DNA of 64,000 bases, taken from the NCBI RefSeq assembly GCF_016863115.1, contig NZ_BOOG01000010.1, positions 1-64,000 on the forward strand, in the 5' to 3' direction. The stretch comes from Sphaerimonospora thailandensis. Lineage in GTDB: Bacteria > Actinomycetota > Actinomycetes > Streptosporangiales > Streptosporangiaceae. Position numbers and translations under genes: made by a program. Below, in pieces: positions 9,580-64,000 of the stretch; the stretch's first letter is position 1, and every line of letters starts with the position of its first letter. The notes under the pieces were generated by a model that saw only the letters and a list, made by a program, of their open reading frames with translations, did not search any database and was not told the DNA's origin.

Positions 9580-9879
9580 TTATTCCTCGTGGTCGTTGAA
9601 GAGCCGCTGTCGTACGGACAGCAGTTCGATCTCGGGGTGGAATGCGACCACACGCTCACACGAGCCGAGCACCTCGTCGCAGTTGGCGGCCGACGCCGAA
9701 ACCACCGCGATGCCGATCTCCGCGCGGCGGTGCAGATCCAGGTGACCGGTCTCGGCCACCGCGACGCTCGGGAACCTCCGCTGCAACTCGGCGATCAGCG
9801 GACGGACCACGGAGCGCTTCTGCTTCAGCGAACGCACGTCGCCGAGCAGGATGTCCAGAGTAAGTGCCCCAATGTACAT
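9580..9879 (-). CDS. DUF503 family protein (YlxP-like)
   Basis: A 99-residue protein of the DUF503 family, usually found between infB and rbfA. It has the characteristic MYIGALTLDILLGDVRSLKQKRSVVRPLI start and a small alpha/beta fold. Its function is not established; the constant neighbourhood suggests a role in translation or ribosome assembly. The ribosome site is weak. It follows the infB terminator hairpin and precedes rbfA by 50 bp, so it may be the first gene of the rbfA-nrnA-truB-ribF transcript. Confidence 0.9.
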   Translation of the reverse strand: MYIGALTLDILLGDVRSLKQKRSVVRPLIAELQRRFPSVAVAETGHLDLHRRAEIGIAVVSASAANCDEVLGSCERVVAFHPEIELLSVRQRLFNDHEE

Positions 9880-9902
9880 GGATGTCGTCTTACCGCGGCG
9901 GT

Positions 9903-9951
9903 GACGTTCGGCCGCCGCCCCCGTGCGAGCACGGGGGCGGCGGCACGGACG

Positions 9952-9953
<2 letters not shown>
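9903..9953 (-). terminator. Strong hairpin terminator after infB
   Basis: A perfect 14-bp GC stem at 9911-9924/9931-9944 with loop GCGAGC, plus an outer GACGT/ACGTC pairing, begins directly behind the infB stop codon. It should separate the rimP-nusA-ylxR-infB transcript from the DUF503-rbfA transcript. No T-run is present. Confidence 0.8.
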
Positions 9954-13056
<3,103 letters not shown>

Positions 13057-48062: not shown

Positions 48063-49820
48063 CTAACGGCGTGCCGACCGCACCAGGTCGTGCCTCGGTG
48101 TCCTGAGCAGGTCCCGGTGATCCCGTACGGCCCCCGGCGCCGCTTTGCGTGCCGCCGCTTTGCCTGCCGCCGATTTCCGTGCCGTCGGCCGTGGGCCGGG
48201 CTGGGCAGGGCAGGTCGCGTCGGCGCCGCGTACGCCCCGGCGCTGCGGCAGCAGGGCCGCGTCCCGCAGATATGCGGCGAGTTGCCGGTCGACGCAGGGG
48301 TTCCCGGCCAGCGACACACCATGGTTGCCCCCGCCCACCTCGGTGAGCAGCCGGGCCGTCGGGAAGCGGCCGCGCATGCGCAGGGCGCCCGCGTACGGCG
48401 TGGCCGCGTCACGCTCGGCCTGAATCAGCAGCACCGGCGGCAGTCGGTCGGCCCCGATCTTCACCGGGGTGCCGCCGCGCACCGGCCAGAAGGCGCAGGG
48501 CGCGTTGTAGACGGCGTTCTGCCAGGCCATGAACGGTGCCTTCGCGTGCATCTTCACCGTGTCCGCGTGCCAGCGGGACCAGTCACGCGGCCAGGCCGCG
48601 TCGCGGCACTCGACTCCCAGATAGACGGCATAGGAGTTCTCCTCCTCGGCGTCCACCTCGGCCTGGTCGTGGAAGAGTTTGACAAGGCCGGTCGTGTCCC
48701 CCCTGCGCACGTAGGCGGAGAACGCTTCGGCGAGAGCCGGCCAGAGCAGGTTCGAGTAGCCGCCCGAGGTGTAGATGTCGTCCAGTTCGCTGGGGCCGAC
48801 GATCCCCCCGGCCGGCCGCTCCCGCAGGCGTGACCGCATCGAGGACCACGCGAACTCCACCGCCCTTTCGGTACGGCCCAGCCGGTAGGCGTCGTGGTGC
48901 TCCGCCATCCAGGCCAGGAAGTCGCGCTGGCGGCGATCGAAGCTGCGGTCCTGGGCGAGGTTCACGTCGTACCAGACGCCCTCGGGGTCGACCACGCTGT
49001 CCAGCACGAGCCGGCGTACCCGCTTGGGGAACAACGTGGCGTAGACGGCACCGAGATAGGTGCCGTACGAGTAGCCCAGGTAGCTGATCTTCTCCTCGCC
49101 CAGGGCCGCGCGGATCATGTCCATGTCCCGCGCCGTGTTCTCGGTCGTGAGGTACGGCAGGAACCACGACCAACGGTTGCCGCACGCCTCGGCGTACTGC
49201 CTGGCCCGGGCGACCAGCACGTCCTCCTCGGCCTTGCCGCGCGGCACGTTGTCCGGGCGCGGCGGGGCGTAGTAGTGCTTGGGATTCACGCAGGCGATGG
49301 CCGGCCGGCTGGCGCCGACTCCGCGCGGGTCGAACCCGATCACGTCGAACCTCGTGGCGATGTCCCGGGGCAGCTGGGACGCGACGAACCTGGCCAGCTC
49401 CAACCCCGAGCCGCCCGGACCCCCGGGATTGACCAGCAGCGAGCCGAGGTGGTTGCCGTCCCTGGAGACCGAGCCCCTGATCCGGTTCAACGCGATCGTT
49501 ATCTGCTGGCCGTACGGCTCGGCGTAGTCGAGCGGCACCCGGACCGTCCCGCACTCCTCGCCCTGCGCCCGGTTCCTGCTCTGCTTGGCGGGCAGCACAG
49601 GGCCGAGAGCGGCGCCGAGCTTCGACGACAGTCCCGAACGCTCACAGGGACCCCAGGTGATCCCCTGCCGTCCCCGCCAGGGCGCCGGGTGGGACGCGTC
49701 CGGGAGAGCCCGCGCTCCGGCGGCGCCGATCGCCCAGACAGGGCCTACCGGGCCGACCGGCCCGACCAATCCGGTGACCAGCACCGTCACACCCGCGAAC
49801 ACTCCGACGACCCGCTTCAC
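48063..49820 (-). CDS. Secreted tripeptidyl-aminopeptidase-like alpha/beta hydrolase
   Basis: A 585-residue secreted hydrolase of the TAP family that removes N-terminal peptides from proteins. The signal peptide contains a GPV repeat (GLVGPVGPVGPVWAIGAAGA). The fold shows LLVNPGGPGGSG (oxyanion hole), the nucleophile in YLGYSYGTYLG, Asp in LLIQAERDAATPYAGA and His in VGGGNHGVSL, with a C-terminal TAP_C domain. The last 45 residues are Lys/Arg/Ala-rich. GTG 49820 has GGGAG 8 nt upstream. It is placed between ispG and the DUF4081 gene, where other actinobacteria have none. Confidence 0.9.
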   Translation of the reverse strand: MKRVVGVFAGVTVLVTGLVGPVGPVGPVWAIGAAGARALPDASHPAPWRGRQGITWGPCERSGLSSKLGAALGPVLPAKQSRNRAQGEECGTVRVPLDYAEPYGQQITIALNRIRGSVSRDGNHLGSLLVNPGGPGGSGLELARFVASQLPRDIATRFDVIGFDPRGVGASRPAIACVNPKHYYAPPRPDNVPRGKAEEDVLVARARQYAEACGNRWSWFLPYLTTENTARDMDMIRAALGEEKISYLGYSYGTYLGAVYATLFPKRVRRLVLDSVVDPEGVWYDVNLAQDRSFDRRQRDFLAWMAEHHDAYRLGRTERAVEFAWSSMRSRLRERPAGGIVGPSELDDIYTSGGYSNLLWPALAEAFSAYVRRGDTTGLVKLFHDQAEVDAEEENSYAVYLGVECRDAAWPRDWSRWHADTVKMHAKAPFMAWQNAVYNAPCAFWPVRGGTPVKIGADRLPPVLLIQAERDAATPYAGALRMRGRFPTARLLTEVGGGNHGVSLAGNPCVDRQLAAYLRDAALLPQRRGVRGADATCPAQPGPRPTARKSAAGKAAARKAAPGAVRDHRDLLRTPRHDLVRSARR

Positions 49821-51263: not shown

Positions 51264-52361
51264 TCACGCCCGCTGGGCGGCCTGGAACAGGTCCCTGGCC
51301 GCCGCGCCGAAATAGGGGCCGTACATCGTGCGGTGGTCGTTGCTGTACTTGAAGCTGCTCACCGAGGTGAGCGTGCCGCGGCCGGTGGCCGGGTCGAAGC
51401 CGCTGAGCCAGGGCCCGCCGCTCGCCCCGGCCGTGAGATCGCAGCGCAGCCCCTGATCGCGGGTCTGCCCCTGGGGATCCGCGCGGACCACACCCGCGCA
51501 GTACAGCAGGTGCTCCCCGTTGTAGGGCGGGTCGGCCGGGAAGCCGAACCCGTAGGTGCGCAGCCCCCGCCGGGCGTTGAAGCCGATCTCCTGGCCGCCC
51601 ACGGCGTCGCCGAGGTGGCGGCCGTTCGCCGTGGTCACCGCCACCATGCCCAGGTCGTAGTCGTCGTTCCCGCCACGGGCCCACGGCCCGGCGACGAACA
51701 TCCGCCGGGCGGTGTAGGCGCCGTACGGTCTCCGTCCGGCACGGTAGCCGGGGACGAACGTCCAGTTCTCCGCCCAGGACCCCGAGCCGTTCTTCACACA
51801 GTGTCCGGCCGTGACCACCACGTCCTTGTTCGCACTGCGTACGGCACTGGCCGAGCAGACGAAGTCGACGCCGTCCATGGTCAGGAACACCCGGCCGGTG
51901 GTCCTTGTCACCGCACCGCCCGCGTTCCACTTCGACCCGCTCGTCCTGGCCTGCGGCAGGCCGGGTCGGCGTGCCAGTCCGGCCTGCCGTACGCGCCGGG
52001 GCCCGGTGGAAGCGGCGTCGGGAGACGGGGAGGGAGACGGGGAGGGAGACGGGGAGGGAGACGGGGAGGGAGACGGGGAGGGAGATGGGGGAGGCACGGG
52101 GGAGGCCACGGCGGCCGGAAGGATGCCGGCGGTCGCCATTTCCACCCGCTTGACCGTGGACAGCAGGTCTATGGGGAGCGCCCGCTCCATCCGCTCCGGC
52201 GTCCAGTAGGTGCCCAGGGCCGAGGCGGTCACGTGATCCACGATGTCGGAGGCGGCGGCCGGAGATGGCGCGGCGGACATGGTGACGACCCCGGGCTGCG
52301 GGACTCCCGTGAGTCCGGTGACGAGGGCGGCGAGGGCGAGCAGGGGGAGACAGGGAGTCAT
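51264..52361 (-). CDS. Secreted trypsin-like serine protease
   Basis: A 365-residue exported protease. Signal peptide [20 protein letters not shown], a propeptide region, then a Ser-Pro repeat linker of about 24 residues (encoded by 12-bp repeats), and a chymotrypsin-fold domain with catalytic His in VVTAGHC, Asp in DDYDLGMV and Ser in GASGGPW. Two further Cys pairs suggest disulfides. The start is uncertain: ATG 52361 fits the signal peptide but has no ribosome site, and GTG 52439 is in frame. It lies between ispG and dxr. Confidence 0.87.
52021..52092. repeat. 12-bp tandem repeats coding for the Ser-Pro linker
   Basis: Five perfect copies of GGAGACGGGGAG run from 52021 to 52080, followed by a degenerate copy. 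On the minus strand they code for Ser-Pro dipeptides in the protease linker. Copy number is likely variable by slippage. Confidence 0.9.
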
Positions 52362-52469
52362 GGAACCCGAGTTTGGACCACGATCTGTCGTCTCGTGGCT
52401 ACTTTCAGTGAATCCGATGGCGGATGCGTGCCGGTCCACCGAGCGCTCCTCCTCGGAGACAATGAGGCT

Positions 52470-53702
52470 ATGACCACAGATCGCCGTCAGCCGGCCGAGT
52501 CGCCCCCGGGTTCACCACCCCCGTCACCGCCCGGGCGGGAACGCTCGATCGTGGTGCTCGGGTCGACCGGGTCCATCGGCACCCAGGCGCTCGACGTCGT
52601 CGAACGCGCGTCCGGGCGCTTCCGGGTGGCCGCCCTGGCGGCCGGGGGCGGTCGCGTCGACCTGCTGGCCGGTCAGGCCGCCAGGTTCGGGGTGGAGGCG
52701 GTCGCCGTCGCCGACGCGGCAGCCGTACCGGCGCTCCGGGAGGCCCTCGCCGCACGCGGCGCACGGCCGAGGATCCTGGCCGGGCCGGAGGGCGTCGCCG
52801 AGCTCGCCGCCCTCCCCTGTGACATGGTGCTGAACGGGATCACCGGCGCGCTCGGATTGACCTCCACCCTGGCGGCCCTGGAGGCGGGCCGGGTGCTCGC
52901 GCTGGCCAACAAGGAGTCCCTGATCGTCGGCGGACCGCTGGTGAAGCGACTGGCCGCGCCGGGGCAACTGCTCCCGGTGGACTCCGAGCACTCCGCACTC
53001 GCCCAGTGCCTGTGGGCCGCCGGGCCGTCCGGAGCCGACGCCCGGGCCGTACGCCGCCTGGTCGTGACGGCGAGCGGCGGCCCGTTCCGGGGGAGGCACC
53101 GAGCGGAGTTGGGGGACGTCACGCCCGAGATGGCGCTCAACCACCCGACGTGGAACATGGGCCCCGTGATCACGGTGAACTCCGCCACCCTGGTCAACAA
53201 GGGCCTGGAGGTGATCGAGGCACACCTGCTCTTCGACATCGGCTTCGACCGGATCGACGTGGTGGTGCACCCGCAGTCGGTGATCCACTCGATGGTCGAG
53301 TTCACCGACGGTTCCACGGTCGCCCAGGCGAGCCCGCCCGACATGCGGCTGCCGATATCCCTCGCGCTGGGATTCCCCGAGCGCGTTCCGGGCGCGGCGT
53401 CGGCCGTGGACTGGACCGCCGCGCACACCTGGACGTTCGAGCCGCTCGACGACGAGGCGTTCCCGGCCGTCGCGCTGGCCCGCCATGTCGGCGCCCAGGG
53501 TGGTACGGCTCCCGCCGTCTACAACGCGGCCAACGAGGTGTGCGTGGAGGCGTTCCTCAAGGGCGGCCTGCCGTTCCTCGGCATCATGGACACCGTGGAG
53601 CGGGTGGTCGCCGAACACGCGCCGGGACCGGCCTCATCGGTCGAGGAGGTGCTGGCCGCCGACGCGTGGGCCCGTACCCGCGCCGCCGAACTGACCGGGT
53701 GA
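52470..53702 (+). CDS. dxr: 1-deoxy-D-xylulose 5-phosphate reductoisomerase
   Basis: First committed enzyme of the MEP isoprenoid pathway (DXP to MEP with NADPH). The 410 residues include [16 protein letters not shown] (NADPH loop), [21 protein letters not shown] (metal ligands), VTASGGPF and [28 protein letters not shown]. An N-terminal Pro/Ser extension of about 22 residues is atypical but harmless. The ATG follows GAGGCT. A frame continues far upstream, without DXR character. It is separated from and inverted relative to ispG. Confidence 0.95.
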
Positions 53703-53724
53703 GCCGAGCTCACCAGGTGAGGAA

Positions 53725-53755
53725 CGGCCGACCGGGTTGCCGCCCCGGTCGGCCG
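53725..53755. terminator. Bidirectional terminator between dxr and aldehyde dehydrogenase
   Basis: CGGCCGACCGGG (53725-53736) and its complement (53744-53755) form a perfect 12-bp stem with a 7-nt loop, between two convergent genes. Confidence 0.8.
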
Positions 53756-53765
53756 AGTCATGTGA

Positions 53766-55226
<1,461 letters not shown>

Positions 55227-55233
55227 GCTTCTC

Positions 55234-55239
55234 ACGCTA
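55234..55239 (-). promoter_or_regulatory. Probable -10 box of the leaderless dehydrogenase gene
   Basis: TAGCGT on the minus strand, 7 nt before ATG 55226. Confidence 0.4.
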
Positions 55240-55356
55240 TGCCACCCCGCCGACACCGGCGTTGCTCCATGCCGCACAATCGGAGGCGGGCGACACGCCG
55301 ATGTGGACAAGATTTCGCCTGGTCACGAATGCGCGGCAATTTCAGGATGTTTTCCG

Positions 55357-55374
55357 TTTCAATGCGGTTTGAAA
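55357..55374. promoter_or_regulatory. Candidate operator between aldehyde dehydrogenase and tetR
   Basis: TTTCAA-TGCGGT-TTGAAA is a perfect 6-bp inverted repeat in the divergent region, suited to a TetR dimer. Confidence 0.5.
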
Positions 55375-55447
55375 GACGAGCGGCATGGTTAAGTCATCTT
55401 CCGGGTCTGGTTTGTGAGACTCCCGATATGAGAAGGGCTCGTCGCTG

Positions 55448-56089
55448 ATGGGTACGCCGGCGCCGCTCGGACTTCAGGGTGCCTACACGCGCGGCCACCG
55501 CAGCACATACGACGAGCTGCGCACGCGCCTGCTCGACGTCGCCGGCCGGCTGCTCGACTCCTCCGGGCCGGAGAGCCTCACCGTCCGCCGGATCGCCGCC
55601 GAGGCGGGCTGCTCGGCCCAGGTCATCTACACGATGTTCGGCAGCAACGAAGGACTCGCCGAAGCTCTGTATCTGGAGGGCTTCGAGCGCTTTCGACGCC
55701 GCCTTGAGGCAGTGCCGGACCGCCGCGACCCGCTGGAGCACCTCACCGCGCTGGGTCCGGCCTACCGGGACGCCGCGCTGTCCGAGCCGGGCTACTACAG
55801 TCTCATGTTCGAGCGGGCCATCCCCGGTTTCGTGCCGAGTGAGCGGGCCCGCACGCTCGCCCGGGCCGCGTTGAACATCGTCGACCGGGTGATCGCCGAC
55901 TGCATCTCCGCCGGTTATCTGGTGCCGACGCAGCCACGACGGATCGCCGACGCGGTGTGGGCCGCCGCCCAGGGTGCGCTGAGCCTGGAACGTGCCGGTC
56001 ATCTGGCCGACGGCAGGACGTACGAGACCATTACTACCGCCGCCATCCGCAGCTTCATGACCGATCCTGGTCCCACGCCGAGCCCCTGA
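55448..56089 (+). CDS. TetR family transcriptional regulator
   Basis: A 213-residue regulator. The helix-turn-helix at about 25-70 reads LLDVAGRLLDSSGPESLTVRRIAAEAGCSAQVIYTMFGS. The C-terminal TetR_C domain (PAYRDAALSEPGYYSLMFERAIPGF) is of the WHG type. No good ribosome site precedes ATG 55448, so the exact start is uncertain. Divergent from the aldehyde dehydrogenase, its likely target through the palindrome at 55357-55374. Confidence 0.88.
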   Translation: MGTPAPLGLQGAYTRGHRSTYDELRTRLLDVAGRLLDSSGPESLTVRRIAAEAGCSAQVIYTMFGSNEGLAEALYLEGFERFRRRLEAVPDRRDPLEHLTALGPAYRDAALSEPGYYSLMFERAIPGFVPSERARTLARAALNIVDRVIADCISAGYLVPTQPRRIADAVWAAAQGALSLERAGHLADGRTYETITTAAIRSFMTDPGPTPSP

Positions 56090-56119
56090 CACTGCCGAGC
56101 CACCGCACCCACCACCTGG

Positions 56120-56252
56120 GAGCTTGTCGAGGCGGGTGTCGATATTGCCGCGGATGCGTTCGGTGCACCAGGTCGGGCCGGCACATCGTGAGCTGCGCGC
56201 GGCGGCGCACCGAGCTGGTACCGATCAGGGACCCGGCGAGGCTTGGAGGCAT
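56120..56252 (-). pseudogene. Remnant of hemC (hydroxymethylbilane synthase)
   Basis: Minus-strand translation gives LAGSLIGTSSVRRRAQL and then RPDLVHR in one frame, followed one base out of frame by ERIRGNIDTRLDKL. These match, in order, the GTSSxRRxAQL...RPDL and IRGNxDTRLxKL blocks of porphobilinogen deaminase. The flanking sequence no longer resembles the enzyme, so about 45 codons remain, broken by a single-base frameshift near 56160. The intact hemC must be elsewhere. The remnant marks a rearrangement point at the edge of the glycosyltransferase island. Confidence 0.75.
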
Positions 56253-56337: not shown

Positions 56338-57693
56338 ATGCCGTTCGAGGCGCGGGAAATCGATCCAGCCGGGTCCTCCCGTGCACAACTCGGCGCGGAA
56401 ATACGACGGCTGCGCACAGAACGGGGGCTCAGTCAGGCCGGACTGGGCCGACTCATCCACTGCAGCGCGGATCTGGTGCGGCGGGTGGAGACGACGGAGC
56501 GATTCCCGACACAGGACTTCCTTGTGGCCTGCGACAGGGCGCTGGATGCAGGTGGGTTACTGACAGCGCTTTGGCCGGCGCTGTCGGCCGAGCGGCGGCG
56601 TGGTGGGGCAACCACGGGGGCGGCGGTGCGGCTCGTCGCAGCCGAGTCCGACATGGCCGTTTCCGCCTGGCTGGCCGGGAGTGGGGCTGGAGCGGGGGCA
56701 GTCTCCGAAAGCCCCTCCCGCGATGGTGACGGCCTGTGGGTGACGGAGCAGGATCTGGCCGTTGCCGAAGGCATGCTGACGATGTTCCGGCAGTTGGATC
56801 ACGCTCACGGCCCAGGGACGTTCGCGCCGCAGTTGGTCGCCTACACCGAGCGGGAGTTGGCGCTCCTGCTCTCCCGCCAAGCCGCTCATCCGGCCGTTGC
56901 GTGCGAGCTGGCACGGCTGGCGTCGCGGTTCTGGGAACTGGCGGGCTATCAGGCCGTCGATGCCGGCCAGCCGGGGACTGCCCAGCGGTACTACCAGCGG
57001 GCGTTACAACTGGCAGACGAAGCCGAAGACCGCTGTCTGGGCGGCTATCTGGTGGCGGTGAACCTGGGGCACTTGGCCTTGCACTGTGAGCATCCACACA
57101 TCGCCATGCGGTGGGCGCAAGCCGCCGAGACGGCAGTGGGGACGGCCGCAAGTCCGTCGACACGGGCGGCGATTCTGGCGGTACAGGCCCGAGCCCAGGC
57201 GAGGATGGGCCGGGAGAGCGACAGCACCGGACTCCTGCTGCGAGCCGAAGCCCTGGTCAGCTCCGCTGAGGGCGTGGAAGAGCCGGAGTGGATCCGGTAC
57301 TTCACTCGCGCCTACCTGGCCGATGAGATCGCGCATTGCCTGCACGACCTGGGCCGCCCGTCGGACACTCGCGTGGAGGCTGCCGACGCACTGAACGGAG
57401 TCGGTATTACGCATGTGCGCAGGCTCGCCATTGACACCGCGCTGGTGGCCACTTCGTGGCTGCGCTCGGAGGACGTCGAGCAGGCGTGCGCGGTGGCGCG
57501 GGACGCGGTCGGCTACGCCGCCCGTACCTCCTCCGGGCGCTGCGTGCAGCGGATTGCGGTCCTACTGACGGAACTGGCACCGCACGCTCGCCTCGCCTGT
57601 GTGGCTGACCTTTACGCCTACGTGGAGCAGGTGCTGTCAGCCGCCTTACTGGCCCAGCCGGTCACAGGCGACGCCTCAGCTGCGCGCTCATGA
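56338..57693 (+). CDS. XRE-family regulator with TPR-like C-terminal domain
   Basis: A 451-residue protein. The N-terminal helix-turn-helix (about 16-75) reads LGAEIRRLRTERGLSQAGLGRLIHCSADLVRRVETTERFP. The rest is all-helical with TPR-like pairs (AQRYYQRALQLADEAEDRCLGGYLVAVNLGHLAL). Such XRE-TPR regulators are typical near actinomycete secondary-metabolism and signalling loci. ATG 56338 has GGGGAGG 5 nt upstream. Its end overlaps the convergent S9 peptidase gene by 32 bp. It could bind the 29-bp palindrome at 59579-59607; that is an inference. Confidence 0.88.
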   Translation: MPFEAREIDPAGSSRAQLGAEIRRLRTERGLSQAGLGRLIHCSADLVRRVETTERFPTQDFLVACDRALDAGGLLTALWPALSAERRRGGATTGAAVRLVAAESDMAVSAWLAGSGAGAGAVSESPSRDGDGLWVTEQDLAVAEGMLTMFRQLDHAHGPGTFAPQLVAYTERELALLLSRQAAHPAVACELARLASRFWELAGYQAVDAGQPGTAQRYYQRALQLADEAEDRCLGGYLVAVNLGHLALHCEHPHIAMRWAQAAETAVGTAASPSTRAAILAVQARAQARMGRESDSTGLLLRAEALVSSAEGVEEPEWIRYFTRAYLADEIAHCLHDLGRPSDTRVEAADALNGVGITHVRRLAIDTALVATSWLRSEDVEQACAVARDAVGYAARTSSGRCVQRIAVLLTELAPHARLACVADLYAYVEQVLSAALLAQPVTGDASAARS

Positions 57694-59470
57694 GGCGACG
57701 GTAGAAGGCCAGTTCAGCCTCCAAGGCGGCACGGCGGCTGCTCGGCTCGGACAGGTAGTGGCCCGCGCCATCGAGGAAGAGGGTCTCGTGGTCGGTGCCT
57801 GCCTCGCGCAGGGCCGCTGCGAGTTGGCGAACGTCGTCGGCCGGGGCGACGGTGTCGCCGGTGCCGTGGATCATCAGTACCGGCAGGTCGATGTCCTTGG
57901 CCTCGACCGCGCCCGCAGGGCCGGCGAGGGCGAGTGCGTGGGCGCGTTGGAAACGCGGGACACTGTTCGCCCATCGAGCTGGGTCGGTGATAGCCGAAAC
58001 GGCGGTGACGCCAGCGAAGGGTGAGCCCGCACGTCGTGCGGCTTGGAGGGCGGTGTATCCGCCGGCGCTGGCTCCCGTTAGGAAGACGGCTCCGGCACGC
58101 GCCGTGCTTTCGTCGACCAGGGCGCGGGCGACATCCTGGCAGTCGTCGGCATCAAAGGTGCCCCAGTGGCCGTAAAGGGCCTGGCGGTAGGCGCGCCCCC
58201 GGCCGGTGCTGCCGCGGTAGTCGACGTCAGCGACTGCGAAGCCGTGACCCACGAAGTACTGGACAGTCAGGTCAAGGCGCTCAGTGGCGCTGTCGGTAGG
58301 GCCGGGGTGCGCGCGGACCAGCAGCGGGACCGGGCCTCGCGTCGCCTCGGCGGGGAGGTGCAGCAGGTAGTCGACGGGTGCTCCGGCTCGGGCCAGGACG
58401 CGGCGCTGCGGGGGCTTGGCGGCGCAAGGGGAGTCTTCGCCCACGAGTCGCGTCGCGGCGGCCGCGGTCCTGCCTGCGCCGGGGCTGATGAGCCAGACTG
58501 CCGGAGTGGTCACGGATTCGGCGGCGATGACGGCGAGTTGGTCGCCGAGGGACGCGGCGTACGGCTTTGCGGATGTGAGTTCGGGGCACAACTCCTTGAG
58601 TGTGCCGTCCGGCTCCCGCAGGACCAGTTGGGTGCGGGCGCCCTGACGCACCGTCAGTACCGTGCGCCCTCCAGTCAGGAATGCGTAGGACTGGTAGCCG
58701 GCCTCCCACGGTGCCGGGGCGCAGTCGCTGTTCATGGGCGCGAGAGCACGGACAGCCGCGTCGCGCCAGGCGTAGAGGTTCCACCATCCGGTGCGGTCGG
58801 AGATGAAGTACAGCGTGCCGTCCGGCCCCCAGACGGGCTGGACCACGGACTCGTCTGCGCCGCCCGCCAGCGGTTGGCTTGGTCCCAGCTCCCGGCCGGG
58901 GCGGTGTTCGGCCAGCAGGAGGCAGCTGGCGTCCCAGGGCATCCGGTCAGCGTCCCACTTGAGGTAGGCAAGGTGGCCGTTGTGTAAGCGGGGCGCGCCG
59001 AGGAAGCCTGGTGCGCGGACCAGGACCCGTTCGGCCCGGGTGCGGAGGTCCACCTCGACAATCGCGTCGCCGTCCTCGCCGCCGCGTACCGCAAGCAGGA
59101 AGTCTCCCGCTGCGAACAGGTCACCGTAGGCAGCGTCCGCGGTGCGGGGCGTCAGCACCAGTTCTGGCACGCCGCTGTCCGGGCCGACGATGTTCAGTGC
59201 CCCGTCGTTGCCCACGACCCAAATGCCGTGGCCGGTAGCCGCGAAGGCGCCGCCTCCATAGGCGTGGAGCCAGCCGCCGACCGAAAAGCGGGGGTCGGTC
59301 ACGGCCTCTGGGCCAGTGGCGAGCGTCCAGCGCATCAGGCGGGTGGCGCCGGAATGGCGCGGGTCGCTTTGCAGCCACCACAACGCGCCTTGGGCGCAGG
59401 TCAGTCCGTCCACGGACACGAGTCGCTCGGCGACCCGCGCGGCATCGAGTGCGGAGTTCTCGCCCGTCAT
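57662..59470 (-). CDS. S9 family peptidase (prolyl-oligopeptidase/DPP-like)
   Basis: A 602-residue serine peptidase. An N-terminal beta-propeller-like region (about 20-340; PVWGPDGTLYFISDRTGWWNLY) is followed by the alpha/beta hydrolase domain with the Ser in LTGASAGGYTAL, Asp in MIHGTGDTVAPADD and His in DGAGHYLSEP. No signal peptide, so probably cytoplasmic. GGAGG lies 6 nt before the ATG. It is divergent from the ATPase/epimerase operon across a large palindrome. The role may be processing or turnover of a small peptide product; this is a guess. Confidence 0.9.
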   Translation of the reverse strand: MTGENSALDAARVAERLVSVDGLTCAQGALWWLQSDPRHSGATRLMRWTLATGPEAVTDPRFSVGGWLHAYGGGAFAATGHGIWVVGNDGALNIVGPDSGVPELVLTPRTADAAYGDLFAAGDFLLAVRGGEDGDAIVEVDLRTRAERVLVRAPGFLGAPRLHNGHLAYLKWDADRMPWDASCLLLAEHRPGRELGPSQPLAGGADESVVQPVWGPDGTLYFISDRTGWWNLYAWRDAAVRALAPMNSDCAPAPWEAGYQSYAFLTGGRTVLTVRQGARTQLVLREPDGTLKELCPELTSAKPYAASLGDQLAVIAAESVTTPAVWLISPGAGRTAAAATRLVGEDSPCAAKPPQRRVLARAGAPVDYLLHLPAEATRGPVPLLVRAHPGPTDSATERLDLTVQYFVGHGFAVADVDYRGSTGRGRAYRQALYGHWGTFDADDCQDVARALVDESTARAGAVFLTGASAGGYTALQAARRAGSPFAGVTAVSAITDPARWANSVPRFQRAHALALAGPAGAVEAKDIDLPVLMIHGTGDTVAPADDVRQLAAALREAGTDHETLFLDGAGHYLSEPSSRRAALEAELAFYRRLMSAQLRRRL

Positions 59471-59578
59471 CCGTCACCTCCAGCCGTGGACGTCCGGCGC
59501 ACGCCCGACCGTATCGCGATTCGTGAGCTCCACCGCGAGCAAGGCCAGTATGCGATCGTTCGCGCGGGCAGCCGGAAT

Positions 59579-59607
59579 CCATGCGGACAACCGTGTTGTC
59601 CGCATGG
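59579..59607. promoter_or_regulatory. 29-bp perfect palindrome, likely operator
   Basis: Arms CCATGCGGACAAC and GTTGTCCGCATGG (13 bp each, no mismatch) flank CGT. It is centred about 123 bp upstream of the S9 gene and about 116 bp before the ATPase start. Size and position suit a dimeric regulator controlling both directions; as RNA it would also fold into a strong hairpin. Confidence 0.65.
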
Positions 59608-59621
59608 CGCCCATAGCCCCG

Positions 59622-59638
59622 GGGGTGGAATTCACCCC
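59622..59638. repeat. Second inverted repeat near the palindrome
   Basis: GGGGTG-GAATT-CACCCC, 6-bp arms, 14 bp to the right of the larger palindrome, in the same control region. Confidence 0.4.
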
Positions 59639-59708
59639 ACGCTTGAATCCAGCCGAACAAGGCAGCATGAACGAGCGCTCCGCAGGTGAGATCCAGGGAG
59701 GTGGGAAG

Positions 59709-60173
59709 GTGCGAGACCGAGGGACCACGTCCGGCGAGGGCCGGGCGATGACCTTGATCGCACTGGGAGGGCGGGCCGAAGCGTCCGCTCGTCTGGACTG
59801 CGACCTGCCGGCCGAGCCGTCATCAGCATGCATGGCACGCGCCCGTGTTCGGGGGCACTACGCCCTCAGGGGCAGCGATGACAGGCTGGACGACCTGGAA
59901 CTGGTTGTCGGCGAACTGGTTGCCAACGCAGTGGACGCGTCGACGGACGGCCAGCGGGTGCGGGTGCGCCTTGCCCACGAGCACGCCCACGTCCTCGTGG
60001 AGGTCTTCGACCATTCCAGTCTCCCGCCGGTCCGCCGCAACGCCGAACTTCTCGCGGTGCGGGGTCGCGGGCTGGAAATCGTTGACGCGCTGACAAGCGC
60101 CTGGGGTTGGTACCCCACCTCCTTCGGCAAGGTCGTCTGGGCATTGTGCCCTGCGCCATCTGCTCAGCCCTGA
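59709..60173 (+). CDS. RsbW-like ATP-binding protein (HATPase_c)
   Basis: A 154-residue GHKL ATPase of the anti-sigma/regulatory kinase type. The N-box reads ELVVGELVANAVDAS, the G1 region VEVFDHSSLPP, and the G2 region RGRGLEIVDALTSAWGW. Many actinomycetes encode stand-alone copies that regulate differentiation or metabolism. GTG 59709 is preceded by GGGAGG at 7 nt, the best of three in-frame starts (59667, 59709, 59748). It leads the operon of sugar-modifying enzymes, with 86 bp before the epimerase gene. Confidence 0.85.
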   Translation: MRDRGTTSGEGRAMTLIALGGRAEASARLDCDLPAEPSSACMARARVRGHYALRGSDDRLDDLELVVGELVANAVDASTDGQRVRVRLAHEHAHVLVEVFDHSSLPPVRRNAELLAVRGRGLEIVDALTSAWGWYPTSFGKVVWALCPAPSAQP

Positions 60174-60259
60174 CCCCCGCTTCTCGCTTCTCACGCACGC
60201 CCGACGAGTCGCACTGTCCCGCGTGCCTGTCTTCTTCCATCAGCCAGGAGGTCTGCTTC

Positions 60260-61252
60260 GTGTTGCCCGAAATCCCATCAGCGCCCACGTGGCGCTTCCA
60301 CAGAGCCGTGGTGACCGGTGGCAGCGGTTTCGTTGGCTCGCACCTGTGCGAGGCGCTGCTCGCTCGCGACACCGAGGTTGTGTGCGTCGACAACTTCTTG
60401 ACCAGCAGCCCGGACACGCTCACGCGCCAGCTCGGCGCGGACGGGTTCGCGCTGCTAAAGCACGACGTGTGCGCCGCGTTCGACGTACCGGGTGAGGTGG
60501 ACCTGGTGCTGCACCTGGCCTCGCCTGCCTCCCCAGCCGACTACCTCAAGCTCCCGCTGCAGACCCTGCGCGCCGGATCGGCGGGGACGCTGAACGCGCT
60601 GGAACTGGCCCGCCGTAAGGGGGCCCGGTTCGTGCTGGCATCGACCTCGGAGGTGTACGGGAACCCGCTGGTGCATCCCCAGCCGGAGACGTATTGGGGG
60701 AACGTCAGGCCGACCGGCCCACGCAGCGTCTACGACGAGGCGAAGCGGTTCGCGGAGGCGACGACCGCCGCCTACCGGCGGGAGTTCGGCACCGACACCG
60801 CGATCGTGCGGATCTTCAACACCTACGGGCCGCGGATGCGCCCCCACGACGGCCGCGTCGTGCCGACCTTCATCCGGCAGGCGCTGAGCGGCGAACCGCT
60901 GACCGTGGCCGGAGACGGAAGCCACACGCGATCCCTGTGCTACGTCTCGGACACCGTCGACGGGTTGCTCGCGGCCGCAGAAAGCACGCTGGCGGGGCCG
61001 GTGAACCTGGGCTGTCCCGAGGAGCTGACTGTTCGGGCGATCGCCGAACTGGTAGGGCAGTTGTGCGGCTCCGATTTGCCACTCACCTTCACGCCGCTGC
61101 CGGCGGACGACCCGGCTCGCCGCTGCCCCGACATCTCGCTGATCCGTCAAGCCACCGGCTGGCAGCCCCGGGTCCCCTTGCGGGATGGTCTGACGGCCAC
61201 CATCGCCTGGTTCACCGGTCAACTCGCCACTCCCATCCCGGCTGTGAGGTGA
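60260..61252 (+). CDS. NAD-dependent epimerase/dehydratase, UDP-xylose-synthase-like
   Basis: A 330-residue extended SDR. VTGGSGFVGSHLCEALLARD is the NAD loop; LHLASPASPADYLKLPLQTL, LASTSEVYGNPLVHPQPETYWGNV and SVYDEAKRFAEA carry the catalytic Ser/Thr, Tyr and Lys. The HLASPASPxxY and HPQxExYWGNV features are typical of UDP-glucuronate decarboxylase, which makes UDP-xylose, but a dTDP-sugar substrate is also possible. GTG 60260 has AGGAGG 8 nt upstream. The next gene begins 4 bp after the stop. Confidence 0.88.
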   Translation: MLPEIPSAPTWRFHRAVVTGGSGFVGSHLCEALLARDTEVVCVDNFLTSSPDTLTRQLGADGFALLKHDVCAAFDVPGEVDLVLHLASPASPADYLKLPLQTLRAGSAGTLNALELARRKGARFVLASTSEVYGNPLVHPQPETYWGNVRPTGPRSVYDEAKRFAEATTAAYRREFGTDTAIVRIFNTYGPRMRPHDGRVVPTFIRQALSGEPLTVAGDGSHTRSLCYVSDTVDGLLAAAESTLAGPVNLGCPEELTVRAIAELVGQLCGSDLPLTFTPLPADDPARRCPDISLIRQATGWQPRVPLRDGLTATIAWFTGQLATPIPAVR

Positions 61253-61256
61253 CGCC

Positions 61257-61952
61257 ATGTCCTCGCTCCTTCCTCCCGCTCGTGCCCACGACAGCCTTGC
61301 CGCAGCCGACCTCTCCAGTGGCCTCGCCGCTACCGGCTTCGGCGTCGCACCCGCAGTCGTCACCGGACCACTGCTGTCGGCACTGCGTGACGAGGCCCAG
61401 CGCCTGATCGACGCCCACGACGGCACCCCGGGCTACTCACCCGACTACTGGACCTTCACGGACTCGGCGACCGGAGACGAGGTTCTGTACCGGATCCACC
61501 GCCTGGAGCAGCAGCCGGGCGCCGTCCACGCAGCGAGCCTGTTCGCGGACGGGCCGCTGCACCGATTGGCCGAGGATCTATTCGGCGGGCCGGTGCGGGC
61601 CACCGTGTGCGCGATGATCGTGAAGGTGCCCTGGCACGCTGCTGCGGTCCCATGGCACCGCGACCGGACCGAGGTGCCGGCCGGGAGGGTGTGCAACCTG
61701 AGCCTGTTCCTGGACGACTGTGATGCCGCCAACGGTTGTCTGCAGTTCGTCCCGGGCTCTCACCTGCTGGCCGACGACGCCGACGCGGAGAGGGCGCGGC
61801 TGGCGGGGCCGGTGGTGGAGCTGCCGATGCGCGCGGGGGACGTGGCCGTGCACGACGTCCGCGCCGTGCACGCCTCGCTGCCCAACCACAGCGCGCGGAT
61901 CCGCCGCAGCATCGTCGTCGAGTTCGCCTCCTCCGCCTGGGAGCTGTCATGA
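61257..61952 (+). CDS. Phytanoyl-CoA dioxygenase (PhyH) family oxygenase
   Basis: A 231-residue Fe(II)/2-oxoglutarate oxygenase. The facial triad is visible as WHRDRTE (His, Asp) and the distal His in VHDVRAVHASLPNHSARIRRSI, whose Arg should bind 2-oxoglutarate. CLQFVPGSHLL is typical of PhyH proteins. It probably hydroxylates a sugar, lipid or small-molecule intermediate. GAGG is 7 nt before the ATG. It is coupled to the GT2 gene by an ATGA overlap. Confidence 0.88.
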   Translation: MSSLLPPARAHDSLAAADLSSGLAATGFGVAPAVVTGPLLSALRDEAQRLIDAHDGTPGYSPDYWTFTDSATGDEVLYRIHRLEQQPGAVHAASLFADGPLHRLAEDLFGGPVRATVCAMIVKVPWHAAAVPWHRDRTEVPAGRVCNLSLFLDDCDAANGCLQFVPGSHLLADDADAERARLAGPVVELPMRAGDVAVHDVRAVHASLPNHSARIRRSIVVEFASSAWELS

Positions 61953-62998
61953 GCGCCGAACGGCCCGGACGCGTCCGGGTGGCGACGGTCACGGTGGGGA
62001 CCAACGAGCGGCGCTGGCTGGAGCCGTGCGTGTCCACACTCGTCGACTCGGCGTGCCCTGAGGTGGAGCTGACGGTGTGGTACGTCGACAACGCGTCCCG
62101 GGACGGCAGCGCGGACTTCGTCCGTGAGCGCTTCCCCCAGGTGCGGGTGATCGAGAACGCGTGCAACGAGGGCTTCGCGCGGGCAAACAACATCGGCATG
62201 CGCGCCGCGCTCGCCGACGGCGCCGACTACTTGTTCCTGGTCAACCCCGACACCCGGACGCCCGCGTCCCTGGTGGCCGACCTGGTGGCGTTCGGCGAGG
62301 CATGGCCCGAGTACGGGATCTTCGGCCCGATGCAGCACCGCTACGCGCCGCACTGCACGCGGATCGCGTGCGGGGACTGGAACGACTGGTCACGGACGGC
62401 CGTGCGCTGGGACGAGCAGCACGCCTTCGCCGGAGACTGGCCGGACCATCCCTCGCCCGCCGGTCCGCTGGAGAGGCGAGCGCCGGACACACTCGAGCAC
62501 GCCTACGTCCAGGGCGCGGCGCTGGTGGTACGCGGTGAAGTCCTGCGCAGGGTCGGGCTGTTCGACGAGGTGTTCCACACCTACTACGAGGAGACGGACC
62601 TGTGCCGACGCGCCCGGTGGGCCGGATGGCGGGTCGCGCTGTGCCTGACGCTCGGCATCGAGCACCAGGGCGGCGGGGGTGCGGGCCAGGGCGTCTACCG
62701 ACGTGTCCAGATGCGGCGAAACCGCTACTACTACCTGCTCACCGATATCGACTGGTCGCCGTTGGACGCCGCCCGACTGGCTGCACGCTGGCTGCTGAAG
62801 GATTTGCGCGGACGCAGCGTGGGCGGACGCACCACCTGGTGGCGGGGCTGGTGGGAGACGGCGCGCGCTGCGGGCTGGCTGGCTGCCCGGGCGGGCGTGA
62901 TCTGGACTCGGCGGCGCGAGTACCGGCGGCTGCGTACCGCCGGCTCCCGGCCCGCGAAGCGAATGGCCGGCGCCGAGACGGCTGGGGGTGCCAGGTGA
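61949..62998 (+). CDS. GT2 family glycosyltransferase
   Basis: A 349-residue GT-A enzyme like rhamnosyl/galactofuranosyl transferases. The nucleotide-binding start is VATVTVGTNERRWLEPCV, then WYVDNASRDGSADF and FLVNPDTRTP (the DxD-equivalent), and the catalytic-base region FDEVFHTYYEETDLCRRAR. No membrane helix is seen; the last 80 residues are Arg/Trp-rich. GGAG lies 5 nt before the ATG. It is coupled on both sides (ATGA with PhyH, GTGA with the next gene). Confidence 0.9.
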   Translation: MSAERPGRVRVATVTVGTNERRWLEPCVSTLVDSACPEVELTVWYVDNASRDGSADFVRERFPQVRVIENACNEGFARANNIGMRAALADGADYLFLVNPDTRTPASLVADLVAFGEAWPEYGIFGPMQHRYAPHCTRIACGDWNDWSRTAVRWDEQHAFAGDWPDHPSPAGPLERRAPDTLEHAYVQGAALVVRGEVLRRVGLFDEVFHTYYEETDLCRRARWAGWRVALCLTLGIEHQGGGGAGQGVYRRVQMRRNRYYYLLTDIDWSPLDAARLAARWLLKDLRGRSVGGRTTWWRGWWETARAAGWLAARAGVIWTRRREYRRLRTAGSRPAKRMAGAETAGGAR

Positions 62999-64000
62999 CC
63001 GGGCCGAGGATCGTGTTCGCCGGGGACTTCCACTGGCAGGCCGGCTCCAGCCACACGATCGCGGAATACGTGCGGACCGCCGCCGAGGTGGGCTGCGAGG
63101 TGGCGGTCTCCCGCGAACTGTCCCGCCTGGACGGCCATGTGGACGCGGTGCTGCCGTTGGTCGACGATCTTGCCTGGGGCTCGCACCTGGTGCTGGTCTT
63201 CGAGGGCCGCCAGTTCCTGGATGCACAGCGGCTCGACCTGGTTGAGCGGCGCATCCCTCGTCGGTGTCGGCTGATCGTGGACCCCGACGGGCGCTGGGGG
63301 CCATACCTCGCCTGCGGCACGGACGACGAAGGCGGACCGGAACGGCACGCCGCCTGGCAGGACCTGTATCGGCGGCTGTCGGCTACGGTGTTGCAGCCCC
63401 GGCTCGGCCAACTGCCGGACGGCGCCTGGTTCTTCAGCTACTTCGGAATGCCCCAGCCGGTCGCCGCGCGCAGACCGGCCCGCTGGGACCTGCAGTACGT
63501 GGGCGCGAACTGGTGGCGCTGGCGGCAGTTCGCGGACCTGGTCGAGGCGGCCCGGACGGCTCTGGGTTCCGGGCGTGTGCGGGTGTGTGGGCGCTGGTGG
63601 GACGGCGCCCCGCATCCCGAGCACCTTGCCGCCACCGGCAACGAGCCCGGCTGGCTCGCCGCCCGCGGGGTGGACGTACGCCCGCCGGTTCCGTTCGGGC
63701 AGGTCGTCACCACCATGGCCGAGTCCGTGCTGACCCCGGTGCTGGCACGTCCGCTGCTGGCCCGCAAACGGCTGCTGACGCCGCGGATGTTGGAGACCCT
63801 CGCCGCGGTCGGCACCGCCCCGGTCCTGCCCGCCTCTCTGGCCTACACCCGTCACCTGTACGGCGACGCGATCGTCCCGTTCCTGCTCGGCGACGCTGCC
63901 GCGGACGCGCTGGCGCGCCTGCACCGCGAGGCCGAGGCCCGCCAGTCGGCCCTCGATGCGCTGCGGGCGGGCCTGTACCACCGCTTCAACTACCGCACCG
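62995..64000 (+). CDS. CgeB-like glycosyltransferase, cut by window end
   Basis: The frame opens at GTG 62995 (GTGA overlap with GT2) and is open to the last base, giving at least 335 residues. It begins VTGPRIVFAGDFHWQAGSSHTIAEYVRTAAEVG. The C-terminal half has LLTPRMLETLAAVGTAPVLPASLAYTRHLYGD, similar to the donor-binding end of spore-protein CgeB/YkvP-type glycosyltransferases. The middle has WDLQYVGANWWRWRQF. It continues the coupled operon, which extends beyond the window. Confidence 0.82.
   Translation, partial: MTGPRIVFAGDFHWQAGSSHTIAEYVRTAAEVGCEVAVSRELSRLDGHVDAVLPLVDDLAWGSHLVLVFEGRQFLDAQRLDLVERRIPRRCRLIVDPDGRWGPYLACGTDDEGGPERHAAWQDLYRRLSATVLQPRLGQLPDGAWFFSYFGMPQPVAARRPARWDLQYVGANWWRWRQFADLVEAARTALGSGRVRVCGRWWDGAPHPEHLAATGNEPGWLAARGVDVRPPVPFGQVVTTMAESVLTPVLARPLLARKRLLTPRMLETLAAVGTAPVLPASLAYTRHLYGDAIVPFLLGDAAADALARLHREAEARQSALDALRAGLYHRFNYRT

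What the first reader, a model, noticed from the sequence alone, without database searches (positions are those of the whole stretch)
56338..64000. Uncharacterised glycoside-type biosynthetic island
XRE-TPR regulator, S9 peptidase, RsbW-like ATPase, UDP-xylose-synthase-like epimerase, PhyH oxygenase, GT2 and CgeB-like GT stand together, the last four with gaps of 4 bp or ATGA/GTGA overlaps. I know of no described pathway with this exact set. It starts beside a hemC remnant, as expected for an inserted block, and continues beyond the window.
Basis: partly seen in the sequence, partly recalled or inferred. Interest (0 to 1): 0.65.

Follow-up and report, generated by a model that had tools for sequence, protein, structure and literature searches.

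The report
Compact orthosomycin-like oligosaccharide gene cluster
A nine-gene cluster that appears to build a small sugar-chain antibiotic related to avilamycin sits beside a gene that probably protects the maker's own ribosomes, and it offers a stripped-down version of a pathway whose key ring-forming step is still not assigned to an enzyme.

Summary
The genes are real, but the window cuts the cluster. On the same contig the operon runs on to 68976: nine co-directional genes (UDP-xylose-synthase-like epimerase, PhyH oxygenase, GT2, CgeB-type GT, pyruvyltransferase-family protein, second epimerase, HAD, GT2, GT4). A convergent gene follows (69019-69849), 72% identical to AviRb, the avilamycin-resistance 23S rRNA methyltransferase. 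Eight of the nine genes have counterparts in orthosomycin (avilamycin/everninomicin-type) clusters; the PhyH's best solved relatives are AviO1 and EvdMO1. The pyruvyltransferase-family gene has no counterpart there. The same nine genes, in the same order beside an AviRb homolog, occur in 8 Streptomyces/Kitasatospora genomes; a tenth genome has a rearranged variant. Our operon has no PKS, halogenase, deoxysugar, methyltransferase or eurekanate-type gene. A genus-mate has an empty site: about 56.09-70.33 kb is inserted (or was lost there), and this block also carries XRE, S9 and RsbW-like genes, which I do not count as part of the pathway. Best reading: a PKS-free 'mini-orthosomycin' pathway with AviRb-type self-resistance. 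Orthoester, pyruvylation and ribosome target are inferred, not shown.

The parts
56090..56240 (-). hemC (porphobilinogen deaminase) remnant, two frames, at the left edge of the inserted block (limits approximate)
   Evidence: Pfam PF01379 E 4e-4, below the curated cut-off; frame translations
56338..57693 (+). NsdA-family XRE/TPR regulator; on the block; a role in the pathway is uncertain
   Evidence: NF053720 E 4e-76; a 31-36% relative lies upstream of the operon in L019-L022, 4 of 8 same-order loci
57662..59470 (-). S9 peptidase; on the block, not conserved with the operon
   Evidence: PF00326; no hit in the related loci
59748..60173 (+). RsbW-like HATPase; on the block, not conserved with the operon
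   Evidence: PF13581; start; only weak partial matches, in L024 and L026
60260..61252 (+). EpiA: UDP-glucuronate decarboxylase (UDP-xylose synthase) type SDR; GTG start with AGGAGG upstream
   Evidence: human UXS1 (4gll, 2b69) E 5e-96; 57-61% to the counterpart in 4 orthosomycin-type loci
61257..61952 (+). PhyH: AviO1/EvdMO1-type Fe/2OG oxygenase, putative orthoester former
   Evidence: PF05721; PDB 4xaa E 9e-48, 6ec3 E 6e-43; H134, D136, H205, R216 conserved; tree
61949..62998 (+). GT2a glycosyltransferase
   Evidence: PF00535; 58-61% to 3 orthosomycin-type loci
62995..64000 (+). CgeB-type GT (PF13524); its stop is at 64032, beyond the window. The rest of the unit also lies beyond the window on the same contig (numbering continued): PPT/PF04230 64051-65256 +, EpiB 65314-66381 +, HAD 66378-67112 +, GT2b 67109-67981 +, GT4 67978-68976 +, AviRb-type methyltransferase 69019-69849 -
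   Evidence: CgeB-GT; 43-48% to 3 orthosomycin-type loci; alignment A3 matched 4 of 250 family genomes: ours, G217, G120 and a broken copy in G076. Beyond the window: Pfam; PPT in 10 of 10 operon loci and no hit at E 1e-4 in the orthosomycin-type sources; EpiB 60-63% to 7 loci, HAD 42-45%, GT2b 38-41%, GT4 49-52% to 3 loci each; AviRb-type: PDB 1x7o E 2e-133, 72%, adjacent in 10 of 10 operon loci

Best explanation
The island is a compact, PKS-free biosynthetic operon of the orthosomycin lineage. EpiA probably makes UDP-xylose and/or UDP-4-keto-xylose, which EpiB remodels (inferred: towards L-lyxose). Four glycosyltransferases assemble a short oligosaccharide. The AviO1-type Fe/2OG oxygenase closes one spiro-orthoester between two sugars. 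The PF04230 protein decorates a sugar, most likely with pyruvate. The AviRb-type enzyme methylates 23S rRNA at the orthosomycin site, so the product would be an orthosomycin-like translation inhibitor: roughly the 'eastern', pentose-bearing half of avilamycin without its aromatic cap, deoxysugars and eurekanate. Shown here: gene content, order, homology, the empty site in a genus-mate, and conservation beside AviRb homologs. Inferred: substrates, orthoester, pyruvylation, target, antibiotic activity.
For: (1) Eight of nine genes have counterparts in the orthosomycin-type regions of G217 and G120; G217 also holds AviRa-, halogenase-, NDP-hexose-2,3-dehydratase-, E1-dehydrogenase- and radical-SAM-family genes by Pfam. 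In the tree of each of the eight, the operon copies form one side of a branch (100/99 or 100/100; 94/100 for EpiB). (2) PhyH: best solved relatives 4xaa and 6ec3 (AviO1 and EvdMO1 by recall); the HxD...H and distal Arg positions are kept in 10 of 10. (3) Eight named genomes, L019-L026, have the same nine genes in the same order; a tenth (L062) has a rearranged variant. (4) An AviRb homolog lies directly downstream, convergent, in 10 of 10 loci, although AviRb homologs occur in only 27 of 295 genomes of the Streptomyces set (E 1e-80) and 23 of 100 family genomes, ours included (E below 1e-100). (5) Our operon has no methyltransferase by Pfam, while a methyltransferase stands directly upstream of, or in one frame with, the AviO1-type PhyH in 5 orthosomycin-type loci; so a methylenedioxy bridge, which presumably needs an added methyl carbon, is less likely here than an orthoester. 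(6) In evernimicin on the ribosome rings D-E contact H89 and F-G contact H91 (PMC10497419, passages), so a shortened product could still bind.
Against: No product, expression or activity data. The AviRb tree does not group the operon-linked copies (5 label changes, at least 2 forced by well-supported branches; an operon-free copy, G785, sits among them), so AviRb did not simply travel with the operon. AviRb homologs also occur without the operon in many genomes. An AviRa query (PF11599) found nothing in G000. No transporter in the operon. L062 lacks EpiA, has only a 36%-identical EpiB-like gene, and does have a methyltransferase next to PhyH. Pyruvyltransferase function rests on Pfam alone: no PDB sequence matched and the modelled fold matches many GT-B proteins. 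The same passage that gives the F-G contact says direct interactions of ring F are not supported. Six of the eight single-gene trees hold only 3 or 4 orthosomycin-type rows.
Confidence: 0.66

Rival explanations
1. The operon makes an orthosomycin-related oligosaccharide that is not an antibiotic (signal or protective glycan); AviRb beside it is a common resistance gene that served as a landing site.
For: AviRb is widespread without the operon (22 of the 99 other family genomes; 24 of 292 operon-free genomes of the Streptomyces set; a few of these, such as G120, G217 and G613, may hold full orthosomycin-type clusters). Ten contexts, five and five, showed no operon gene beside it. AviRb lineages beside the operon are mixed.
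Against: Adjacency and orientation are the same in 10 of 10 loci although the AviRb copies do not form one clade; repeated landing at one gene of thousands without functional linkage is unlikely.
Confidence: 0.17
2. A cell-surface or spore-coat polysaccharide locus: PF04230 and CgeB-type proteins are known from S-layer and spore-crust glycans (recalled).
For: PF04230 with weak CsaB/WcaK similarity, far below the cut-offs of those models; CgeB-type GT; four GTs.
Against: No glycosyl-1-phosphate transferase, flippase, polymerase or ABC exporter among the nine genes by Pfam; all genes except PPT have orthosomycin counterparts; AviRb neighbour.
Confidence: 0.1
3. A decayed or partial orthosomycin cluster (remnant of a full avilamycin-type cluster) without its own product.
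For: Only 10 of 39 (G217) and 11 of 48 (G120) genes of the orthosomycin regions, as I delimited them, have a hit of at least 100 bits in the operon loci: the eight counterparts, AviRb and one further epimerase in each, plus in G120 a methyltransferase matched in L062 only.
Against: Nine open, mostly overlapping frames; the same order in 9 genomes of three genera at 46-71% identity to ours; the shared genes form their own clades; PPT is in 10 of 10 operon loci and in none of the orthosomycin-type DNA searched.
Confidence: 0.04

Closest known systems
Avilamycin / curamycin cluster (avi; S. viridochromogenes, S. curacoi)
   Same: AviO1-type PhyH (L027 of S. curacoi nearly identical to 4xaa), UDP-GlcA-decarboxylase-type EpiA and GalE-like EpiB in L027, AviRb in the S. 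curacoi genome; counterparts of GT2a, CgeB-GT, GT4, GT2b and HAD in the similar clusters G217 and G120. Names AviE2 and AviQ come from PMC8234114 passages; the match to them is inferred. That S. curacoi makes curamycin is recalled
   Different: No PKS, halogenase, deoxysugar, radical-SAM or methyltransferase genes, no E1-dehydrogenase pair, only one oxygenase; an added PF04230 gene not found in the orthosomycin-type DNA searched
Everninomicin cluster (evd; Micromonospora)
   Same: EvdMO1-type oxygenase domain (6ec3); a glucuronate decarboxylase step as described for EvdS6 (PMC10338323)
   Different: EvdMO1 has a fused methyltransferase (a title in the reference list seen, and recall); here the oxygenase stands alone. 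50 genes and eight SDRs in evd (PMC10338323), three oxygenases (recalled), against nine genes, two SDRs and one oxygenase here
Hygromycin B (HygX orthoester oxygenase)
   Same: Orthoester chemistry by an oxygenase of the same group (PMC8234114, passages); no PKS (recalled)
   Different: Aminocyclitol scaffold (recalled) and a small-subunit target (PMC10497419); no chain labelled HygX among the 17 PDB hits of our PhyH; no aminocyclitol genes among the nine

Membership tests
Orthosomycin biosynthetic cluster | AviO1/EvdO/HygX-type Fe/2OG oxygenase with intact active site | tested here: met
   the role of the conserved residues is family knowledge, recalled
Orthosomycin biosynthetic cluster | Set of sugar-assembly genes homologous to avi/evd-type clusters | tested here: met
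   8 of 9 genes with counterparts in G217 and G120
Orthosomycin biosynthetic cluster | Interglycosidic spiro-orthoester in the product | not testable with these tools
   needs the isolated compound
Avilamycin/everninomicin subclass | Orsellinate PKS, halogenase, deoxysugar genes, E1-dehydrogenase-type eurekanate genes, several oxygenases | tested here: not met
   G217/G120 copies of the PKS, halogenase, 2,3-dehydratase, nucleotidyltransferase, radical-SAM and E1 genes have no hit in the ten operon loci; the dehydratase-like SDR and the other oxygenases hit only under 100 bits, the SDR on the operon's own epimerases. So not filed as avilamycin- or everninomicin-type
Orthosomycin self-resistance (AviRa/AviRb) | AviRb-type SpoU 2'-O-methyltransferase | tested here: met
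   E 2e-133; 72%; activity not tested
Orthosomycin self-resistance (AviRa/AviRb) | AviRa-type methyltransferase | tested here: not met
   an AviRa-family query (PF11599) has no match in G000 at E 1e-5 (which ran no positive control)
Polysaccharide pyruvyltransferase (PF04230) | Pyruvyl transfer from PEP | not testable with these tools
   Pfam family met; activity unknown; fold generic GT-B

The most novel reading that the evidence does not exclude
A family of PKS-free, possibly pyruvylated 'mini-orthosomycins' exists in at least ten actinomycete species. They carry a single orthoester made by one AviO1-type oxygenase, bind the H89/H91 site of the 50S subunit, and are countered by an AviRb-type enzyme that the cluster acquired more than once.
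Probability: 0.42. Interest if true: 0.86.

Novelty: new variant of a known kind. Interest (0 to 1): 0.72.

Why it matters
Orthosomycins bind the 50S subunit far from the peptidyl-transferase centre that most ribosome-targeting antibiotics use, but the everninomicin D cluster has 50 genes (PMC10338323), and in the papers I could read the orthoester step is assigned only by homology, structure and proposal (PMC8234114, passages). A nine-gene cluster with one AviO1-type oxygenase and no methyltransferase separates orthoester formation from methylenedioxy-bridge formation and makes it testable in a small heterologous system. If the product binds, it defines a minimal pharmacophore and a tractable scaffold.

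Tried and rejected
Single-protein scan of genome contigs with PPT found nothing (79 pattern stretches, none confirmed); the alignment of PhyH worked. PPT in 394 genomes of the class: ours only. Plasmid collection: PhyH none, PPT one 28% Novosphingobium hit, not followed. The G1002 PPT hit of the phylum search (2 of 356 genomes, ours and G1002) is 28% identical and lies among other genes with no further operon hit: not a member. The G076 CgeB-type hit is a broken solitary copy. PDB profile searches for PPT and CgeB found nothing. No tRNA on 50001-89099 and no convincing direct repeat at the edges (one 11-mer), so how the block moved is open. No consensus promoter; two terminator-like sites against 3.5 expected. 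GC does not mark the block (70.1% against 70.3/70.2%), though GC3 of XRE, S9 and RsbW is lower. The first PhyH tree (26 rows) needed two label changes and mixed the long EvdO2-type rows with ours; I rebuilt it without rows under 160 aa or at most 40% identical and without EvdO2 (20 rows), so the clean split rests on that reduced set. The S. scabiei BGC table (PMC8914351, passages) shows no entry between SCAB_20801 and SCAB_23071; that our locus falls there is my estimate from tag spacing, not checked. Passages of PMC12498427, PMC9290621 and PMC13372681 held nothing on this cluster.
Full report
What is there. The window is G000:C10:1-64000, the contig being 89,099 bases. Beyond the window the operon continues: CgeB-type GT to 64032, PF04230 protein 64051-65256, second SDR epimerase 65314-66381, HAD 66378-67112, GT2 67109-67981, GT4 67978-68976, then a convergent SpoU methyltransferase 69019-69849. 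Six of the eight junctions of the nine-gene operon are a 4-bp gap or ATGA/GTGA overlaps; the other two (CgeB/PPT, PPT/EpiB) are gaps of 18 and 57 bp.

The block is inserted relative to relatives. In the genus-mate G034 the left flank (52271-56067, 90%) and the right flank (70331-76490, 84%) lie 42 bp apart; G009 and G005 show the same junction with 46 and 205 bp between the matches. So about 14.2 kb was gained in our genome or lost in the others. The block carries XRE, S9 and RsbW-like genes as well. S9 has no match in the related loci; the HATPase has weak partial matches in L024 and L026; an NsdA-type regulator (31-36% identical) lies upstream in 4 of the 8 same-order loci (L019-L022).

Relatives. 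PhyH reaches E 1e-20 in 3 of 250 family genomes, ours included. The other two, G217 and G120, hold it inside large clusters, where EpiA, EpiB, PhyH, GT2a, CgeB-GT, GT4, HAD and GT2b all have counterparts at 38-62% identity. I call these clusters orthosomycin-type because their PhyH groups with the AviO1 and EvdMO1 structures' sequences, they carry AviRb homologs and an EvdO2-like oxygenase (4xab groups with the G217 and L030 copies), and G217 has AviRa, tryptophan-halogenase-family, NDP-hexose 2,3-dehydratase, radical-SAM and E1-dehydrogenase/transketolase-type genes by Pfam. In the S. curacoi locus L027, whose PhyH is nearly identical to 4xaa, Pfam finds a PKS, KAS III, EryCIII-type GT, nucleotidyltransferase, methyltransferases and a radical SAM protein (9 of its genes were scanned).

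Using the PhyH alignment, a scan of one genome per species (84,980 by the tool's description) confirmed 15 loci of 116 pattern matches. Eight (L019-L026: Kitasatospora mediocidica, Kitasatospora sp. A2-31, Streptomyces scabiei 87.22, S. zingiberis and four Streptomyces sp.) have all nine genes in our order. Seven (L027-L033) fall in the orthosomycin-type PhyH clade. The scan depends on two short peptide patterns, so these are lower bounds; it did not return L062 (G896), found through PPT. L062 has PhyH, GT2a, CgeB-GT, PPT, HAD, GT4, GT2b and AviRb but no EpiA, only a 36% EpiB-like gene, and two extra genes: a nitroreductase-family one and a methyltransferase. That methyltransferase (50% to the G120 copy) lies just upstream of PhyH. 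Its relatives in L027, L028 and L029 do too, and in L032 and L033 the match lies directly before PhyH, in L032 within one called gene. G217 keeps only a 72-residue match there, and in G120 the gene lies elsewhere in the cluster. The methyltransferase query had no hit at E 1e-5 in the nine same-order loci.

Evolution. In trees of each of the eight shared genes the operon copies form one side of a branch: PhyH, EpiA, CgeB-GT, HAD, GT2b and GT4 100/100, GT2a 100/99, EpiB 94/100. Six of these trees have only 3 or 4 orthosomycin-type rows, so each alone is a modest test. PPT has no tblastn hit at E 1e-4 in G217 (100 kb), G120 (100 of 102 kb) or the 20-kb loci L027-L029 and L031-L033. Of the genes in the G217 and G120 regions as I delimited them, 10 of 39 and 11 of 48 have a hit of at least 100 bits in any of the ten operon loci: the eight counterparts, AviRb, one further epimerase, and in G120 the methyltransferase matched only in L062.

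Self-resistance. The downstream gene matches 1x7o with E 2e-133. PMC9508554 (passages) lists AviRb as 1X7P, which the tool shows as the same sequence as 1x7o, with product 23S Um2479; PMC12772374 (passages) states its role in protection from avilamycin. The adjacency holds in 10 of 10 operon loci. Controls: AviRb homologs without the operon are common (E below 1e-100 in 23 of 100 family genomes, ours included; 27 of 295 in the Streptomyces set at E 1e-80). The operon-specific PPT is in 3 of 295 of that set, two of them already known, and all three have AviRb. Against a simple co-transfer, the AviRb tree needs five label changes, at least two forced by well-supported branches, and the operon-free G785 copy sits among operon-linked ones. 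I read this as repeated pairing of the operon with AviRb genes, or loss of the operon beside it, which fits function; a landing-site explanation is not excluded. An AviRa query found nothing in G000 (no positive control in that call).

Mechanism. EpiA matches human UDP-glucuronate decarboxylase at E 5e-96. In avilamycin AviE2 makes UDP-xylose for the L-lyxose ring (PMC8234114, passages), and in everninomicin EvdS6 makes UDP-xylose and UDP-4-keto-xylose (PMC10338323, first of eight parts and passages). Eurekanate is thought to need an acetyl transfer by a pyruvate-dehydrogenase-like pair (same paper), which is absent here; a PF04230 protein, a family that usually uses phosphoenolpyruvate (recalled), is present instead. 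The PhyH keeps the HxD...H and distal Arg positions in 10 of 10 copies. The review's table gives AviO1 and AviO3 'formation of orthoester bond and glycosidic bond' and AviO2 'residue H biosynthesis'. The nine-gene operon has no methyltransferase, which argues against a methylenedioxy bridge, so orthoester formation is my choice; L062, which keeps the methyltransferase, may differ. In evernimicin rings D-E contact H89 and F and G contact H91, though the same passage adds that direct contacts of ring F are not supported (PMC10497419), so a short product could bind the same site.

Limits. No product, expression or activity is known. PPT's model (pLDDT 85) matches many GT-B proteins about equally, so pyruvylation is a family-level guess. 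The literature held is open-access only; the listings (30 of 59 papers shown; 20 of 47; none; 12 of 49; 1) showed no description of this cluster. The PNAS paper on orthosomycin oxygenases is not held and is known to me through the review and by recall. The labels AviO1 for 4xaa and EvdMO1 for 6ec3 are recalled; the tool lists 'Putative oxygenase' and 'Methyltransferase domain-containing protein'; EvdO2 for 4xab is the tool's label. That the genus set is Streptomyces follows from its centre, S. scabiei. On checking, the facts that changed (weak HATPase matches, the methyltransferase of L062, AviRa now confirmed by Pfam) did not require new odds.

Noticed in passing
L062 (G896:C1:1500000-1519999): Rearranged variant of the operon without EpiA, with a methyltransferase beside PhyH and a nitroreductase-family gene, still next to an AviRb homolog.
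   Followed up: partly
L030-L033, G217 (L008, L011-L014): Orthosomycin-type PhyH with neighbouring sugar genes in Spongiactinospora, Dactylosporangium roseum, Catenuloplanes japonicus, Micromonospora rubida and an unnamed relative; apparently large clusters worth full annotation.
   Followed up: partly
L044-L048, L071-L075: Solitary AviRb homologs in genomes without the operon, one of them convergent with an AviRa-like gene (L045, judged by eye): a possible reservoir of orthosomycin resistance.
   Followed up: partly
L089 (G076:C1:4976000-4995999), about 9848-10686: Broken solitary copy of the CgeB-type GT with no other operon gene nearby: possibly a decayed cluster.
   Followed up: partly
window 51264-52439 (-): Trypsin-like protease ORF (PF13365, 23.8 bits, below the cut-off of 27.6) with a long Ser-Pro repeat stretch; G009 and G005 each show two matches to it in this neighbourhood.
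   Followed up: no
G217, L008 upstream of PhyH (about 49148-49363 of the composite): Only a 72-residue match to the methyltransferase that stands beside or in frame with PhyH in five other orthosomycin-type loci: perhaps a truncated gene.
   Followed up: no
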